DNA of 64,000 nt from contig VXAZ01018985.1 in assembly GCA_013399875.1 (NCBI GenBank), positions 1,042,693-1,106,692 on the forward strand, in the 5' to 3' direction. Under the pieces are notes generated by a model. The model was not told the DNA's origin. It was given only the letters and a program-made list of their open reading frames with translations, and made no database searches. A program made the translations under genes and the position numbers. Source of the stretch: Gymnorhina tibicen (taxonomy: Eukaryota; Chordata; Aves; Passeriformes; Artamidae). Shown here one piece after another: positions 23,727 to 63,063 of the stretch. The first letter of the stretch is position 1, and every line of letters begins with the position of its first letter.

Positions 23727-24181
23727 GTGCTGGAGTGTGTCCAGAGAAGGACAAAAACTAGTGAGGGGTCTGGAGCACAAGTCTTGTGAGGAGTGGCTGA
23801 GGAAGCTGGGGTTGTTTAGCCTGGAGAAAGGGAGCCTCCAGGGGTGATCTGATCACTGTCTACAACTGCCTGAAAGGAGGTTGTAGCCAGGTGGAGATCT
23901 GCCTCTTGTCCCAGGCAACCAGCAACAGGACAAGAGAACACAGCCTTAAGCTGTGCTAGGGGTGTTTTAGGTAGGACATTAGGAAGAACTTTTTCACTGA
24001 AAGGGTGATTAGACATGGTAATGGGCTGCCCAGGGAGGTGGTGGAGTCACTGTCCCTGGAGGTGTTTAAGGAAACACGGGATTTGGCACTTAGTGCCATG
24101 GTCTCGTTGACAAGCTGGTGTTTGGTCATAGGTTGGACTCGATGACCTCAGAGGTCTTTTCCAACCTAACTGATTCTGTGA
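23727..24181 (+). mobile_element. CR1 LINE, 3' fragment abutting the CpG island
   Basis: A sense-orientation CR1 tail runs through the TTTAGCCTGGAGAAAGGGAG block and GGTTGGACTCGATGACCTC, ending in CTAACTGATTCTGTGA. It is 5' truncated and carries no intact ORF2. Its 3' end lies directly beside the start of the CpG-dense sequence, about 300 bases upstream of the putative TPD52 first exon. Confidence 0.94.
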
Positions 24182-24413
24182 ACCGGATCTCTTCGGTGGT
24201 AGCTTCCTCCTGCCCGTCGCACCAGCTGCGGGCAGCAGGTTGTTCGTGCGTCTCCGCACCGAGCCGGTGCCACGCGGTGTCAGTGGCAGCACCGGCCTGG
24301 GGCACGCAGCTCCGAGGTGCAGCAGCACGGCAGAGCCAGGCGCTGCCCTGGAGCCAGGATGCAGTCGGTGCGGGGCTGACCGAGGGGCAGGCTCGGGGGC
24401 CGCTCACCTGTGC

Positions 24414-24431
24414 GGGGCGGGGCGGGGCGGG
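24414..24431 (+). promoter_or_regulatory. Overlapping GC boxes / G-quadruplex motif
   Basis: Four G runs (4, 4, 4 and 3 G) are separated by single C bases. This satisfies the usual G-quadruplex pattern and also provides repeated Sp1/KLF-type GGGCGG sites, about 60 bases before the three-N ambiguity. Confidence 0.85.
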
Positions 24432-24488
24432 CGGCGCTCGCTCACCTGGGCGGGACGCGCCGCTGAGTGACGGGCGGCGGCCCCGCCC

Positions 24489-24491
24489 NNN
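24489..24491. other. Three-N ambiguity at the putative start codon
   Basis: Three unresolved bases sit between a GC-rich run and GAGGGACCAAG. The missing sequence may be exactly three bases or a longer gap shown at token length. Confidence 0.99.
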
Positions 24492-24502
24492 GAGGGACCA
24501 AG
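24490..24502 (+). CDS. TPD52: TPD52 exon 1a (housekeeping first exon), putative
   Basis: The sequence GAGGGACCAAG is followed by a donor, AAG|GTAGGG, at 24503. Ending in phase 1, the last codons read Arg-Asp-Gln-G, and the split glycine codon is completed by GG at the start of exon 2 to give Arg-Asp-Gln-Gly-Leu-Leu-Arg. The common human TPD52 isoform starts with a very short first exon encoding MDRGEQ before Gly-Leu-Leu-Arg, so length, phase and the Gln-Gly junction all fit. The start codon would lie in the N bases; if exactly two of them were A and T, an ATG would stand at 24490-24492. Only four or five codons are visible, so homology alone is weak; the CpG island and donor carry the case. 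The true start may be further upstream if bases are missing. Confidence 0.55.
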
Positions 24503-27500
24503 GTAGGGCGAGGGGTGGCCGCTGCCGCTGCGCCCCGGGCGGGTGGAGGTGCTGGCGCGGCGGGGACGGCGGTGGCTTTCGCAGCCCTTCGCTGCTCGGC
24601 CCGGACCTGCCCTGCACTGCCCTGCCCAGCCCTGCCGGGCCGGGCAGCGCTGGGGCCGGGGGCGGTGCGGAAGGGGCTCTCCCCGGCCTCGGCAAAGGCT
24701 GCGCCGGCCGTCGGCTCGGGAAATGCGGAACCGGGGCCGGGCGGCGGAGCACGGGGCGGCTGCCGGGCCCCCCCAGCCGCGGATGCGCGGGCAGCGCATC
24801 CCGGCCTTCCCGTGGCGCTTCGCGGGCAGAATAAACTTTCTGCTTGCACCCTGCAGTAAAAGTAAAGCTCTTCTATTTTATGAGTGTGCAACTTTTGATT
24901 GACCAGCGCTGTTCGCAGGGTTTGTTCCCTTTTAATTCTCTCCAGCCCAGGGTTGCACCGCAGCTGGCAGCTGCGTTTGGGCAGCTGCCCCTCGGCCCCT
25001 GAGCGGCAGCAGGGCTGGCGCCTCTGTGGTTTCACTGGTGTGCATTTTGCCTGGGAAGACTGTTGTTCGAGCTGCCGTGGTTGCAACACTCTTCCTAAAA
25101 CTTCATGGTTTATTGAAACCCAGAAACCTTGGGACTGCTTGCCCAAGAGAGTAGATGTTGCCCTGATGAAAACTGAACCTGAATGCAGGCGAAGCACGTT
25201 CTCCTGCTGTATAAGCTTATCCCACAGAGGTGTATTACATTTATCCAACCCATTCATGGATCAGTTGGAGCCTTTTATACGTTGTGGTACTGAACTACAC
25301 GCCAGCTGCTTTCCCCTACACGAGGCAGGGCAGGCTGGGGTCACTAAGTTACCTGCAGTAAGCTGGCAGAGCTCCTTGGCCCAGCTCAGCGTCTGCGCCC
25401 TTGGGCTGATTTCATTCAGGGTTTTCCTGCTTGGCGTGCTTGGGATGGCAGGAAGCGTGCACTTGTGGCGGCTGGGGTGTTGGAGGTGCACGAGCTTTTG
25501 GGAACGTACCCCTGACTCTGCCACGGCCAAGCTCTGTGCTCTGCCAGGTGAGCTGGTCCAGGTGCTAGCCTTGATTTGCTCCCAGTTAAGCGTTTTGAGG
25601 CTTGTGTAGTATAGCTGTACAAATAACAATGACTTCTGAGTTTCTCTGTACTTAGAGAAAAGGTCAAGGTATCTTTGCCTGACCAGAAGGTAATCTGGTG
25701 AGGGGCTAAACCTCCTCAGAGAGGTTCCTTCAACCATTTTGAAGTCCTGTGTCTATTAAATTAAAAAAAAAGCAAACAAAACACAACAACAACAAAAGGA
25801 AAGAAAACAACCCCCAAACCCTATTCTTGGGTACTAACAAACAGTATTGTGCCAGAAAATAGCACAACTGTCAGTTTGATCAGAATTTTAATTCCAACTG
25901 CAGGAGCATTAAAACTGATTTCGATATTTGTCCCAAGGTTCTTGAGGCTCTTCTATAAAAAAGCAAAGGTCCTTACTGCAACTGCAGGGTCTTGAACAAC
26001 TTCTGATGGGAAGGGAGGGTAAAAATAACATGATCTTTTGAAAAACTTTAGTGACAGTCCTGAGACTTACTAGAGGTTTGTTTTGCTATTGTACTCATTT
26101 CTGTTATAAATGGCTTGTATAAAGAGGGTATTGCACCTCAGGATGTTTATCAGAATAGTGTACCTAGTGTGATGTAAGGGACTGTTACAGAGCAAACATG
26201 GGGCAACACCTTCTTCCTCTGCCTTCTTTTTGCTGTTATTATGCTGTTTTCTCTTCATGGTGAGGTGGAGATCTGCAGGTACAGTGGGAAAATCTAGCAT
26301 AGTCAACATACTTGTGCTTGTTAATTAATGGCTTCTAATACCCTGCCAGTTAGACTTCAAAGACCACCTTCCTTGGCAAACTGGAGTGCTTGCATTGGAA
26401 ACTCTGCTTGATGACACAATATTATTACTCACTAAAGCCAGTGTATGTGGTTAAAGTCCAGGCTGCCAGGTCCTGTCTTTGGGGCTGGCTTAGACATCCT
26501 GGACTGCCTCTTGTAATCAGAAATTAAGTTGTTTAAAATTGAGAGTCAGAGGTTGCACATTTTGTTGTTATGGTGACAGCTTTCTCAGATAGCAAAAGTT
26601 AGGCGGTAGGAAGAAAATCTAGATTATGTTTAAGACTGCAGCCAAACCAGACAAGGCTAATGCTCCAGGTGTAGAATGTGCTTAAGTCTCTCCTCTCTCT
26701 TGAGCAGTCAGGTTTGGCAGCAGTCCTTAAAAAGTTGTTCATAGCCTACCACCAGCAGCATCAGAACCAATGAGCAGCTTTTCACTTGAAATGTCTTTGT
26801 TTTCAGCAAAGACATATTTGGACTGGCTCTATGGCTTCATGTGATTCTCGGTGTACTCCAGTAGCTTTGGAAGTAGGGCTCCAAGCACTCGGAGCCTCTT
26901 GCTCTGTGATTACAGCACCAAAGCAGTAGTGTCAGCTCAAGCCAAATGGTTATAATATTATCCTGAGATGAGGAGTCCCTTGTTCTGTTGCTTTGCTTTA
27001 GCTTGTCATGAACAAAAATCTGATTCACTGTATGGACTTTGTTGCTGAATAGATTAATAACTGTAGTTGTGCTTTCACAAAGATGCTGCTGTCCCCTCTG
27101 CCTCCCTATCCCCCCCCCAAATCAAACCACAACCACACCTGATTATGCTTGCAAAAAGAGTCTCTCTCTGGCTTGCCACTCTTATTATTAGTGCTGGTAC
27201 AGTTTTCCAGTGGAAAAATAAGGATGAAGCTGCCCCTACAGTGGAAGCAGTGTTCTGAATGAGGAGACTGTGCCAGTGAGCAGTCTCACGAACACATGCA
27301 CCACAGCAGTTACCTAGTTATGATCCATCCATCTCTGATGTTGTCTTCAGGGCTTCCTCTTATGCTTCAGCAACACTTCACTTATGTAACCTGGTGTCTT
27401 TCAAAATCTTCAGGCTTTTGTGGTACTTAAAAGGAGTCCCAAAACACTACATGTGATTTCTTGAGAGACTGTGTAAGCCTTTCTTTTCCTAGAGCCTTGA

Positions 27501-47100: not shown

Positions 47101-48075
47101 TGACCTTGAAATAAAAAAAAAAAAAAAGGCAGTGAAGTGCTGCAAAGCTGTGCTGAGTGCCTCTTTTAGGTAGGAAACAGTTCTGCTTCCCAGGGTTGAA
47201 TCTTAAAGGCCTGGCATAAAGTCAGATGGCTTATGTAAGTTGATCTTTATGGTATATTTGTCAAAACATGAATACATTTCAGGCGATGCATTACCGGTTC
47301 CTGCCATTACTGGCTGCTCTAAACAATGCTGGTTTGAAGCACCAAGGACATAGGGCAGTGCACTTCAGAAATATTTAAACCCTCCCTCCAAACAAAAAGC
47401 TCAAAACCCCTCAGACCCAGATATGTTTAGCCTCATGAGCAAAAATCATAATGCGCATTAGAATATTCGTCAATAAACCTAGGTGGTGTTTATAGCCCAG
47501 CCTTCAGAGAGGAGTGCTGCTCTCTCCTATTCTGAACTTGCACTACGGTGTGATACCTGGGCAGCAGAGACTGCGTTCTCACTAGTGATTATTACACTGG
47601 TGGAAGCAGCTGGAGAAATAGGTATGCACGCAGAATTTTCCATTAATCAGAGGAAAAAGTCCAACACAGATGGTATATAGGATAGATTATGGCTAGTAAT
47701 CCTTTTGTGTCCTAGAAGATTAAGGATATCCTGGTGTAGCTGCAGTCAGCTGACCTTTTTTTATTTAAACGACTGAAAAGAGTTGATGCAGTTCTGCAGA
47801 GGACCAAGGCTCTTCCAGAAGCCGTAAGCAATGCACTGTGAATGTTTGTTAAAGGAACGGTCTGTTTAAGTCCAGCCTCAGTTATAAATTTACAGGAACG
47901 TAACTTTGTGCCATGTAAACAGCAGCAGCTACAAGATGGCCAAGAAATCACTTGCTAGGCTGCTCTATCATATGTAGTAGAGCTGAATTCTCTGAGGAGG
48001 CACAGTGAGTGTCATGTGAAGAAATGGAGGGTTTCTGAATCCTGCTGTCTGGGTCACCCCAGAAAGCAAAGATGA

Positions 48076-48096
48076 ATGCTTCGGTGGAAGAAGAGG
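48076..48096 (+). other. TPD52: Optional N-terminal extension of the PrLZ-type exon
   Basis: An ATG at 48076 is in frame with the coding exon and directly preceded by an in-frame TGA (48073-48075), so it is the earliest possible start. It would add seven residues (MLRWKKR). Its context is poor (T at -3), so the ATG at 48097 is preferred. Basic residues in the extension have no counterpart in the human isoform. Confidence 0.4.
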
Positions 48097-48247
48097 ATGG
48101 CTGCGCGCTCTGAACTGTCTGGCATGGATCTATATGAGGATTACAAATCGCCCTTCGATTTCAATGCTGGAGTGAACAGAAATTATCTTTACTTGTCGCC
48201 TAGCATAAACCTTTCTCCACCTGGATCACCTACACTGGCAAAGTCTG
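48097..48247 (+). CDS. TPD52: TPD52 exon 1b, PrLZ/PC-1-type N-terminus
   Basis: This exon encodes 50 residues plus one base and joins exon 2 through a shared glycine codon (G|GG) at donor TCTG|GTAACT. The protein contains MDLYEDYKSPFDF, then NAGVN, YLYLSPS and SPPGSPTL. These are the hallmarks of the N-terminal extension of human TPD52 isoform PrLZ (PC-1), known in man as a prostate-enriched, androgen-responsive form. Acidic and tyrosine-rich at first, it ends in proline-directed serine sites. Three ATGs are in frame: 48076 (weak context), 48097 (A at -3, G at +4, chosen) and 48124 (the Met of MDLYED, good context, nearest to the human start). No CpG island surrounds it, so a tissue-restricted internal promoter is likely. 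Treated as an internal cassette from the AG at 48061-48062 it would be 185 bases and would break the frame, which supports a first-exon role. Confidence 0.92.
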
Positions 48248-53254: not shown

Positions 53255-53370
53255 GGCTGCTGAGGAGTGACTCTATACCTGAGGTTGGAGAGGATGCTGC
53301 TGCTACAGTCGGTATGGCAGAAACACTCTCAGAAGAAGAACAGGATGAGCTAAGAAAAGAGCTTGCCAAG
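53255..53370 (+). CDS. TPD52: TPD52 exon 2
   Basis: 116 bases enter in phase 1 and leave at a codon end. After the shared glycine the product reads LLRSDSIPEVGEDAAATVG, then MAETLSEEEQDELRKELAK. It aligns closely with human TPD52 (LLRTD..., ETLSEEEQEELRRELAK) and is clearly closer to TPD52 than to TPD52L1 or TPD52L2. The end of the exon starts the coiled coil through which D52 proteins form homo- and heterodimers. The protein is a cytosolic adaptor linked to vesicle trafficking, lipid-droplet storage and secretion. Acceptor CTCAAG|GG and donor AAG|GTAATT are canonical. Confidence 0.97.
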
Positions 53371-55000
53371 GTAATTCTTTTGCAAATAGCTCTTAAACTT
53401 GTTTTGATAATGAAAATCTGGGATAATGTTATCTTTGAACATACAGTTAATGCTTTGCATAGTTATTCTGTGAGTCTAAAGCTGGCACTTCTGTGTATTG
53501 CACAGAAAGGAAGGAAGGGTGTCAAGGAGAAAAGAACAGCCCGTTCTAGTGATGGAAAATTAAGCTGGAAGTGCTGAATGTAGAGATCTTAAACCAAGAT
53601 AAATAAATACCTAACCCTTTTTTTTTCCTCGAGTGAGAAAGGGGTAAATAAGCAGTCAAAGAGAACATGGTTGGAAACCAAAACCCAATTATTGTTTCAA
53701 CTGGTGTGGAGTAGCTAATGCTGTTTCTTTCATGAGGAATGCTTTGTAGTAGTATCTGTGTAGGCACTGCATTGCTAATGTCTGTGTTACTATTCTTGTC
53801 CATAACAGAATATTTTTAAGAGTGAGAAAAAGTAGCATTCTTTGAAGGACAGATAGGCAAATATTCAAGCCTGATACATGCCAAAGTCAAGCTTTATTAA
53901 GCAGCCAGTCTTTTTTCTTTAGTAGCTCTATCGGACTTTAGGACCATTATGAAAGACACTAACTTAAGCCTAAGGCTGGCAAACAAAGGTTAGCTGTGAA
54001 ATAAGCACATTTAATGCATTCTTGTATTTGGCAGTCCTGAGTATCATTTCATGCTGAAGATAGTGAGAGTAGGCTGGTCCTGCTAGGATATGTCACACTG
54101 GACTTTGGACAGATATCCAGAACAAAGGTGCATTGAAGATACTGTAAGGAGTACAGTAAGGAGCTCTAGTCCTGTAAGGAGCTTAAATGAGTGGGCAGCC
54201 TGATGCTCTAAAGTAGGGTGATCTTGCTTGGATGAGGAAGTAGGATTGGAGGTACGCCCTTGCCTTTGTACATATGGCCTTAGTGCCTCTGTCACTTCTA
54301 TATAGCTCACAGAATGGCATTGGAGAACTGTGCTGACATCTCTGGTCATGTTTCCAGGAGGCACTTAAGTGACCACCCGAGTAAAGAAGGAAATATGCAA
54401 ACAATATGGTTTTCTAGTTACAGAGCAGGTGCTGTGTGTTTGTTGCGTATTTGTGTGGGTTTTGACTGCTCAGTCTGCCGCCATTTCCACACCTGCTCTG
54501 GGGAAGGCACTTCTGTGGCTGGATCCAGCCTACAGGTGCTGGCTTAAGGCACAAAAGGACCTTTCTGGTGAAGCAAGGAGACAAAATTTGTGTATGGATC
54601 AGACATGCTCTGAGCTTCCTGATGCTGGTCACACACTGGTATCTCTTCTGACGTGGAAGTAGAATACAGGCTTGGCGATTGTCCCAGGTTTGACTAATCT
54701 TCAACCTTTACATATCATAGGTATGATTTCTAACTATGCAGTCTTCTAGTTACCAACTTCCTTGTACATATTCCAGTAACAGAGCTAGCTGCAAGTAGAC
54801 TACTTTCTCACTAGCTCTTGTAGTCTTTATGTTGGATTTCTCTTTTAGTATTTAGGAATGACTGTGAGGCAGTGTTAAAAACCTCTGTTAGCTCTCCCAT
54901 TACTGATGTCTACTAAATGCTCTAAAGAAATACATAGTTAAATGGTTGGGTATATTCCTTGTTAACTTTTAACCACTTGTTAACAACTCTCCTGCCACAG
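53371..55000 (+). other. TPD52: TPD52 intron 2
   Basis: About 1.6 kb with a GTAATT donor and CCTGCCACAG acceptor. No repeat family or further exon was recognised. Confidence 0.9.
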
Positions 55001-55149
55001 GTGGAAGAGGAAATCCAGACGCTCTCACAAGTGCTAGCTGCCAAAGAGAAGCATCTAGCAGAAATCAAGAGAAAGCTGGGAATTAACTCACTACAGGAAC
55101 TAAAGCAGAACATTACCAAAGGCTGGCAAGATGTTACATCAACCACAGC
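55001..55149 (+). CDS. TPD52: TPD52 exon 3 (coiled-coil core)
   Basis: 149 bases enter in phase 0 and leave in phase 2. The product runs VEEEIQTLSQVLAAKEKHLA, EIKRKLGINSLQELKQNI, TKGWQDVTSTTA. This is almost identical to human TPD52 and is the most conserved part of the family. Heptad leucines and isoleucines continue the coiled coil begun in exon 2. The segment GINSLQELKQN separates TPD52 from its paralogues. The donor is GC|GTATGT, and the split alanine codon is finished by the first base of exon 4. Confidence 0.98.
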
Positions 55150-56025: not shown

Positions 56026-56127
56026 ATACAAGAGAACATCAGAAACCCTGTCTCAGGCTGGTCAGAAGGCTTCTGCTGCTTTTTCTTCTGTTGGTTCAGT
56101 CATAACCAAGAAATTTGAAGATGTCAG
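56026..56127 (+). CDS. TPD52: TPD52 exon 4
   Basis: 102 bases. The first base completes the Ala codon, followed by YKRTSETLSQAGQKASAAFS, SVGSVITKKFEDV and AG of a split codon. Family comparison shows the conserved YKKTSETLSQAGQKASAAFSS block of TPD52 with conservative changes (Arg for Lys at the third residue, Phe for Leu in KKLEDV). The donor is CAG|GTAGGT. The two-base overhang AG is completed either by T of the cassette exon (serine) or by A of exon 6 (arginine), so both splice forms stay in frame. Confidence 0.97.
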
Positions 56128-63014: not shown

Positions 63015-63063
63015 AAATTCTCCTACTTTCAAATCCTTTGAGGAAAAAGTTGAAAACTTAAAG
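63015..63063 (+). CDS. TPD52: TPD52 exon 6
   Basis: 49 bases enter in phase 2 and end at a codon boundary. The product is NSPTFKSFEEKVENLK after the shared arginine. It is identical or nearly so to human TPD52 and distinct from the paralogues at EEKVENLK. The acceptor is TTCCTAG|A and the donor AAG|GTAAGA, close to consensus. The remaining C-terminal exon(s), 3' UTR and polyadenylation site must lie to the right of the window. Confidence 0.97.

What the first reader, a model, noticed from the sequence alone, without database searches (positions are those of the whole stretch)
48097..48247. Avian counterpart of the PrLZ/PC-1 N-terminal exon of TPD52
The exon encodes the MDLYEDY...SPFDF...YLYLSPS...SPPGSPTL pattern of the human PrLZ isoform and splices in phase onto exon 2. 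PrLZ is usually discussed as a human prostate-specific, androgen-regulated form. Its presence with clear protein conservation in a bird implies that this second first exon arose before mammals and birds split and that the extension has a general function, not one particular to the prostate.
Basis: partly seen in the sequence, partly recalled or inferred. Interest (0 to 1): 0.75.

Follow-up and report, generated by a model that had tools for sequence, protein, structure and literature searches.

The report
Bird copy of TPD52's PrLZ exon
A bird genome carries the alternative first exon of the TPD52 gene that is known in humans as the "prostate-specific" form PrLZ; the exon is shared by birds, reptiles and mammals and already sits in public databases, so its job is unlikely to be limited to the prostate.

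Summary
Window 48097-48247 holds a coding first exon that splices in phase onto TPD52 exon 2 at 53255; with the later exons it gives a 227-aa TPD52. Its 41-aa core matches a human database protein at 33 of 41 residues, against 27 of 39 for exon 2 and 46 of 49 for exon 3. One copy was found in this genome. The probable canonical first exon lies 23.6 kb upstream, the promoter order of human. Proteins with the exon come from 19 named bird genera, crocodilians, turtles, squamates, marsupials and placentals. Two bird-like ones cross the exon 1-2 junction on contigs of 2461 and 1093 bases, too short for unspliced DNA. Origin before the mammal-bird split holds. "Not prostate-only" follows by inference: birds have no prostate. 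It is not new as sequence: NCBI predictions include it, Gallus among them. Most likely it is a disordered tail of conserved short motifs that replaces the short canonical N-terminus and carries the SPOP/ERK site mapped in human PrLZ. Bird tissue expression, dN/dS, and presence in fish or amphibians remain untested.

The parts
24001..25500 (+). CpG-rich stretch: probable canonical TPD52 promoter
   Evidence: GC 0.53-0.70 in three 500-base steps; CpG observed/expected 0.79 at 24001-25000 and 0.69 at 24501-25500
24484..24502 (+). End of the probable canonical first exon (reads RPXRDQ+G), donor at 24503; start codon not found, probably lost in the 3-N gap 24489-24491
   Evidence: ostrich canonical N-terminus in P0137 is MEPGREQG
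48072..48113 (+). 13-codon upstream frame overlapping ATGs 48076 and 48097, ending before 48124
48097..48247 (+).
48124..48247 (+). Conserved core MDLYEDYKSPFDF...PTLAKS; ATG with G at -3 and +4
48148..48162 (+). SPFDF motif
   Evidence: S, P and both F in 156 of 156, D in 155 of 156 retrieved proteins with the exon (the set was itself picked by SPF[DN]F and by similarity)
48184..48201 (+). YLYLSP motif
   Evidence: YLYL and P in 156 of 156, S in 152 of 156
48220..48234 (+). PGSPT, equal to human PrLZ 38-PGSPT-42 (SPOP contact, ERK site Ser40)
   Evidence: that Ser in 155 of 156; mapping in PMC9345960, passages
53255..53370 (+). TPD52 exon 2 (GLLRSDSIPEVGED...)
55001..55149 (+). TPD52 exon 3 (coiled coil); its donor AGC|GTATGT is weak (6 of 9) and was chosen because it keeps the frame
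56026..56127 (+). TPD52 exon 4
63015..63063 (+). TPD52 exon 5; last coding exon lies outside the window at G000:C2499:1106881

Best explanation
This is the bird orthologue of the alternative first exon of TPD52 that gives isoform 1 (PrLZ/PC-1). An internal promoter near 48 kb, downstream of the CpG-island promoter near 24.5 kb, starts a transcript whose first exon splices onto the shared exon 2. The resulting protein has the same coiled-coil body but replaces the short canonical N-terminus with about 40 mostly disordered residues that carry conserved short motifs (EDYxSPFDF, YLYLSP, SPPGSP). I propose that this tail sets the stability and partners of the isoform: its PGSP site is the one at which human PrLZ is bound by SPOP and protected by ERK. 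Shown: exon, open spliced frame, orthology, conservation, low model confidence (disorder) in the tail. Inferred: the promoter, use of this exon in this bird, start at 48124, and the SPOP/ERK switch outside human cells.
For: Exon and spliced frame. Proteins with the exon from 19 named bird genera and from crocodilians, turtles, squamates, marsupials and placentals. Identity to human 33/41 in the core versus 27/39 in exon 2. In 10 relatives whose database frame reads on into intron 1, the exon is 30-41 of 41 identical to the window, the 16-25 codons after the donor from 2 of 25 to 20 of 25. Spliced proteins on short contigs: 8 of 17 short-contig entries cross exon 1-2-3, two of them bird-like (P0018, P0152); 9 read into the intron. 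Promoter order as in human. Model confidence 39-59 per block of ten over residues 1-80 of P0002 against 74-94 over residues 91-190. SPOP binds human 30-SPSGNSSPPGSPT-42, and S40A or S40D abolish it (PMC9345960, passages). Exon choice matters for partners: canonical residues 1-6 bind S2P, PrLZ does not (PMC11615746, passages).
Against: No RNA from this bird was examined. The ERK consensus PxSP is missing in 13 of 156 retrieved proteins: 11 carnivoran ones read SPSGSP, one crocodile lost the serine, one mole-rat the proline, so that switch is not universal. The most invariant residues (Y, SPF.F, G, YLYL) lie mainly before the SPOP peptide, so the main partner may be another, unknown one. All sequences were chosen by similarity, so conservation is an upper bound; in the exon-intron contrast the exon was aligned with gaps allowed and the intron without, which favours the exon. 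No androgen-response-like site lies near the exon (2 matches in 64 kb, 0.79 expected, nearest 53533-53547).
Confidence: 0.65

Rival explanations
1. The tail is above all a docking motif for trafficking machinery: YLYL fits YxxPhi (adaptor mu subunits) and SPFDF an aromatic-acidic motif, so exon choice directs TPD52 to another vesicle class; the PGSP serine only tunes it.
For: YLYL is in 156 of 156 and SPF.F likewise (the latter partly by choice of the set), the PxSP site in 143 of 156; TPD52-like proteins act in trafficking (PMC12896813, passages). Motif classes are recalled, from no call.
Against: No partner of these residues appears in the passages read; YxxPhi motifs are usually read in membrane-protein tails (recalled).
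Confidence: 0.25
2. The conserved DNA is a regulatory element (promoter or enhancer) that happens to be open; the peptide has no role of its own.
For: First exons overlap promoters; the extension before MDLYEDY is poorly conserved. No codon-level test was possible.
Against: Conservation drops at the donor: with 10 relatives, exon 30-41 of 41 identical, intron 2-20 of up to 25; in all 120 proteins listed the exon joins a TPD52 body. Human PrLZ protein was studied directly (PMC9345960).
Confidence: 0.05
3. A steroid-driven, reproductive-tract isoform also in birds.
For: Human PrLZ promoter is androgen-induced (PMC6143958, passages), and the other human use seen, ER-positive breast tumours, is also steroid-driven (PMC5514065; PMC8608905).
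Against: No prostate in birds (general knowledge); androgen-response-like sites at chance level and none near the exon. Expression in birds was not examined.
Confidence: 0.05

Closest known systems
Human TPD52 isoform 1 (PrLZ / PC-1)
   Same: Same exon junction, phase and core sequence (33/41); promoter downstream of the canonical one (human chr8:80993066 against 81083894, PMC6143958); PGSPT site identical
   Different: Residues before MDLYEDY unrelated; LAKS in place of LQKF; androgen control unknown; first exons 23.6 kb apart against about 91 kb in human
Predicted TPD52 isoforms of other birds (e.g. Lonchura striata P0002, Gallus gallus P0023)
   Same: Same exon, 39/41 and 37/41 identical in the core
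   Different: Start codon annotated variously: at MLQWKKR (P0002), MAACSEF (P0006) or MDLYEDY (P0023)
Canonical TPD52 (isoform 3)
   Same: Exons 2 onward
   Different: Begins at the CpG-island exon with a short N-terminus (residues 1-6 in human, PMC11615746)

Membership tests
TPD52 family (PF04201) | TPD52 domain after exon 1 | tested here: met
   P0002, the closest relative, hits PF04201 at 4.2e-52, residues 82-189; own genome exons at C2499 over cut-off. The window's own spliced protein was not scanned.
PrLZ / TPD52 isoform 1 | First exon with EDYxSPFDF...YLYLSP...SPPxSP | tested here: met
PrLZ / TPD52 isoform 1 | In-phase splice onto exon 2 (GLLR...) | tested here: met
   (sequence only); spliced short contigs in bird-like relatives
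PrLZ / TPD52 isoform 1 | Own promoter downstream of the canonical promoter | tested here: inconclusive
   Order of exons is as in human; no transcription start data; TATA-like sites at 47674 and 47883 only
PrLZ / TPD52 isoform 1 | Androgen-responsive, prostate expression | not testable with these tools
   No expression data; motif scan at chance level
PrLZ / TPD52 isoform 1 | SPOP binding and ERK phosphorylation at Ser40 | not testable with these tools
   Only the sequence of the site is conserved (PGSPT)

The most novel reading that the evidence does not exclude
TPD52 has had, at least since the amniote ancestor, a two-promoter switch that swaps a partner-binding short N-terminus for a phospho-regulated degron/docking tail; prostate cancer re-uses this general switch, and the invariant SPFDF/YLYLSP block binds a still unknown partner.
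Probability: 0.35. Interest if true: 0.45.

Novelty: already known. Interest (0 to 1): 0.22.

Why it matters
PrLZ is still described as a prostate-specific isoform in a 2026 review (PMC12896813, passages). That its exon is kept in animals with no prostate means the tail should be studied as a general part of TPD52, with bird or reptile cells as clean tests, and that the most conserved residues (SPFDF, YLYLSP) deserve a partner search beyond SPOP.

Tried and rejected
Chance open frame: rejected by E-values and conserved phase. Duplicate or retrocopy: no second copy of the exon was found in G000, and TPD52-domain hits fall at three gene places, two exon-type hits each (the tool scores only its best candidates). 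PrLZ-like exon in the two paralogues: the 89-aa query gave only an exon-2 match at C2468 (E 0.09) and none at C1051; loci L009-L012 were fetched around the paralogues but not analysed further. Androgen-response elements: chance level (the consensus was recalled). Solved structure: none related (best E 0.49). Structure model of P0002: mean pLDDT 66, pTM 0.26, used only as a sign of disorder; no fold search was run. Origin in fish or amphibians: the named hits listed by the three protein searches are all amniotes, but one search listed 120 of 2854 hits and the other two were limited by length, so this says nothing about absence. Avian D52 cloned earlier from quail neuroretina (recalled, not seen): the search found 0 papers. 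Papers joining PrLZ with chicken (1) or birds (2) were seen as listings only; by title none is about bird TPD52. What I say is not in print rests.

Full report
Observation. 48097-48247 translates without a stop to 50 residues plus one base, followed by a donor CTG|GTAACT (7 of 9 consensus positions; 4.1% of 3794 GT sites in the window reach that). Exon 2 begins at 53255 behind CTCAAG. Joined, the frame continues through 53255-53370, 55001-55149, 56026-56127 and 63015-63063, with AG and GT at the borders, and ends in a last exon outside the window (L008, G000:C2499:1106881), 227 aa in all. The donor of exon 3 is weak (6 of 9, reached by 17.3% of GT sites) and was chosen because it keeps the frame. 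The alternatively spliced piece seen in Gallus P0023 was not looked for between 56127 and 63015.

Start of the protein. Three in-frame ATGs are possible: 48076, 48097 and 48124. The last two have a purine at -3 and G at +4. A 13-codon upstream frame (48072-48113) overlaps the first two and ends before 48124. The mammalian counterpart of MDLYEDY is 48124. Residues before it vary: 8 of 9 shared with Lonchura, 5 of 9 with Coturnix, 0 of 5 aligned with human. I favour 48124, but this is inference; database bird proteins start at the counterpart of any of the three (P0002, P0006, P0023).

Genome setting. The genome (1.019 Gb in 2500 contigs, no relatives held) gave one match to the exon. The TPD52 domain rings at three places: C2499 (this gene), C1051 and C2468, two exon-type hits each. 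A CpG-rich stretch at 24.0-25.5 kb holds the end of the probable canonical first exon: frame RPXRDQ+G with donor AAG|GTAGGG at 24503, no start codon seen, beside a 3-N gap at 24489-24491; the ostrich canonical isoform starts MEPGREQG (P0137). So the PrLZ exon sits 23.6 kb downstream of the canonical one and 5.0 kb before exon 2. Human has the same order: canonical start at chr8:81083894 and PrLZ start at 80993066 (table in PMC6143958, passages; exon positions in PMC5514065, passages).

Relatives. One search found 2854 related proteins and listed 120; all 120 carry SPFDF. Searches, with other length windows, gave 28 and 22. Of 166 distinct proteins retrieved, 156 hold SPF[DN]F and 10 do not: P0136 to P0145, which have another N-terminus. 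Named bird genera with the exon: Lonchura, Cuculus, Opisthocomus, Aegotheles, Falco, Ammospiza, Strigops, Excalfactoria, Geospiza, Coturnix, Phalacrocorax, Anas, Calidris, Melanerpes, Anser, Gallus, Dromaius, Molothrus and Callipepla (19; the last only as an open frame that reads into the intron). Others include alligators, a gharial and a crocodile, turtles, geckos, lizards and a snake, marsupials, many placentals and human. These sets were selected by similarity, so they show presence, not frequency, and cannot show absence or broken copies in other birds.

Conservation. In the 156 proteins (several isoforms per species among them), Y6, S8, P9, F10, F12, G15, Y20, L21, Y22, L23 and P25 of the block never vary; the serine equal to human Ser40 is kept in 155, the PxSP pattern in 143. 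S, P and both F are partly fixed by how the set was picked. By exon, window against human P0162: 33/41 in the core of exon 1, 27/39 in exon 2, 46/49 in exon 3. Ten database frames that read on into intron 1 give a local control: exon 30 to 41 of 41 identical to the window; after the donor 13/25, 13/25, 13/23, 20/25, 4/20, 8/25, 4/25, 4/16, 2/25 and 4/25. The ten were found by exon similarity, and the exon was aligned with gaps allowed while the intron was not, so the contrast leans towards the exon; with the closest relative it is small (40/41 against 20/25). It points to constraint on the coding part but is not dN/dS, since no DNA of other birds was held.

Transcript evidence. Seventeen of the proteins lie on contigs of 950-4358 bases: 8 cross exon 1-2-3, 9 read into the intron (P0148, on 9445 bases, was left out and also reads into the intron). 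P0018 (2461 bases; identical to Gallus P0023 over the 162 residues compared) and P0152 (1093 bases; 169 of 173 identical to the window protein) are the bird-like ones. In the window exons 1-4 span 8.0 kb and exons 1-5 span 15.0 kb, so contigs this short must come from spliced RNA or from a retrocopy. No retrocopy was seen in this genome; the tool does not say what the source 'lgn' is. Transcripts of the window's own species were not available, and tissues are unknown.

Mechanism. P0002 modelled with 46 sequences has low confidence over residues 1-80 (39-59 per block of ten; 50-59 at residues 21-50, where the conserved block lies) and helices 84-121, 127-142, 145-180, 183-198 and 209-218; overall pLDDT 66, pTM 0.26. 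A disordered tail with invariant short motifs is best read as a binding and regulation element. In human cells SPOP binds PrLZ residues 1-46 through 30-42, and ERK phosphorylation of Ser40 blocks this (PMC9345960, passages); that paper calls the phospho-motif evolutionarily conserved, and the passages seen name no species. The window has the same PGSPT. Exon choice has consequences: canonical residues 1-6 bind S2P and TPD52 promotes ATF6 cleavage, PrLZ does not (PMC11615746, passages). I therefore propose a promoter switch between two N-termini, with stability control in the long one. Against it as the whole story: 13 of 156 lack PxSP, and the most invariant block lies mainly elsewhere, so a further partner is likely.

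Prostate. Human PrLZ is androgen-induced (PMC6143958, passages) and is called prostate-specific in a 2026 review (PMC12896813, passages), yet the same first exon is higher in ER-positive breast tumours (PMC5514065, passages; PMC8608905, passages), themselves steroid-driven. Birds have no prostate (general knowledge). In the window, androgen-response-like sites occur twice (0.79 expected; 31 of 100 shuffles reach two), none near the exon. No site-based claim for or against androgen control can be made.

Verdict. Correct finding, main inference supported, little novelty: NCBI-named predicted isoforms already include the exon in many birds and reptiles. I saw no paper on the bird exon in the searches named, in an open-licence library that lacks most subscription papers.

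Noticed in passing
window 63063 (exon 5 end) and G000:C2499:1127812 (L017): Conserved TPD52-MRPS28-type chimera: 19 of the 28 predicted proteins, from 14 amniote species, join TPD52 exon 5 (...VEN[LI]K) to six variable residues and [ED][ST]FASMLR with PF10246, skipping TPD52's last exon; 11 of the 19 start with the PrLZ exon, 8 with another N-terminus. In this genome the PF10246-type exon (VPSEKSESFASMLRR) lies on the same strand 22 kb downstream, behind TAG, in the same phase, so the same chimera is possible. The gene name MRPS28 is taken from PMC3041646, which lists a human TPD52-MRPS28 readthrough with very few reads (passage).
   Followed up: partly
24489-24491: A 3-N gap lies where the start codon of the probable canonical TPD52 first exon is expected, so automatic annotation may miss or truncate the canonical isoform here.
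   Followed up: partly
48072-48113: Short upstream frame (MNASVEEEDGCAL) overlapping two of three candidate start codons of the exon; could damp translation. Conservation not tested.
   Followed up: no
P0015, P0027 (Coturnix), P0017 (Melanerpes), P0134 (Phrynosoma), P0135 (Microtus): Some predicted isoforms insert extra residues between the PrLZ exon and exon 2, i.e. other acceptors or extra exons at this junction.
   Followed up: no
53533-53547: AGAACGGGCTGTTCT on the minus strand, one base off a perfect androgen/glucocorticoid response palindrome (consensus recalled), 163 bp behind exon 2; at chance level for the window.
   Followed up: no
P0038, P0049, P0050, P0056, P0064, P0071, P0074, P0084, P0088, P0095, P0110: These 11 proteins, all with carnivoran names, read SPSGSP and so lack the proline two before the Ser40 equivalent (PxSP), while keeping SP.
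   Followed up: no
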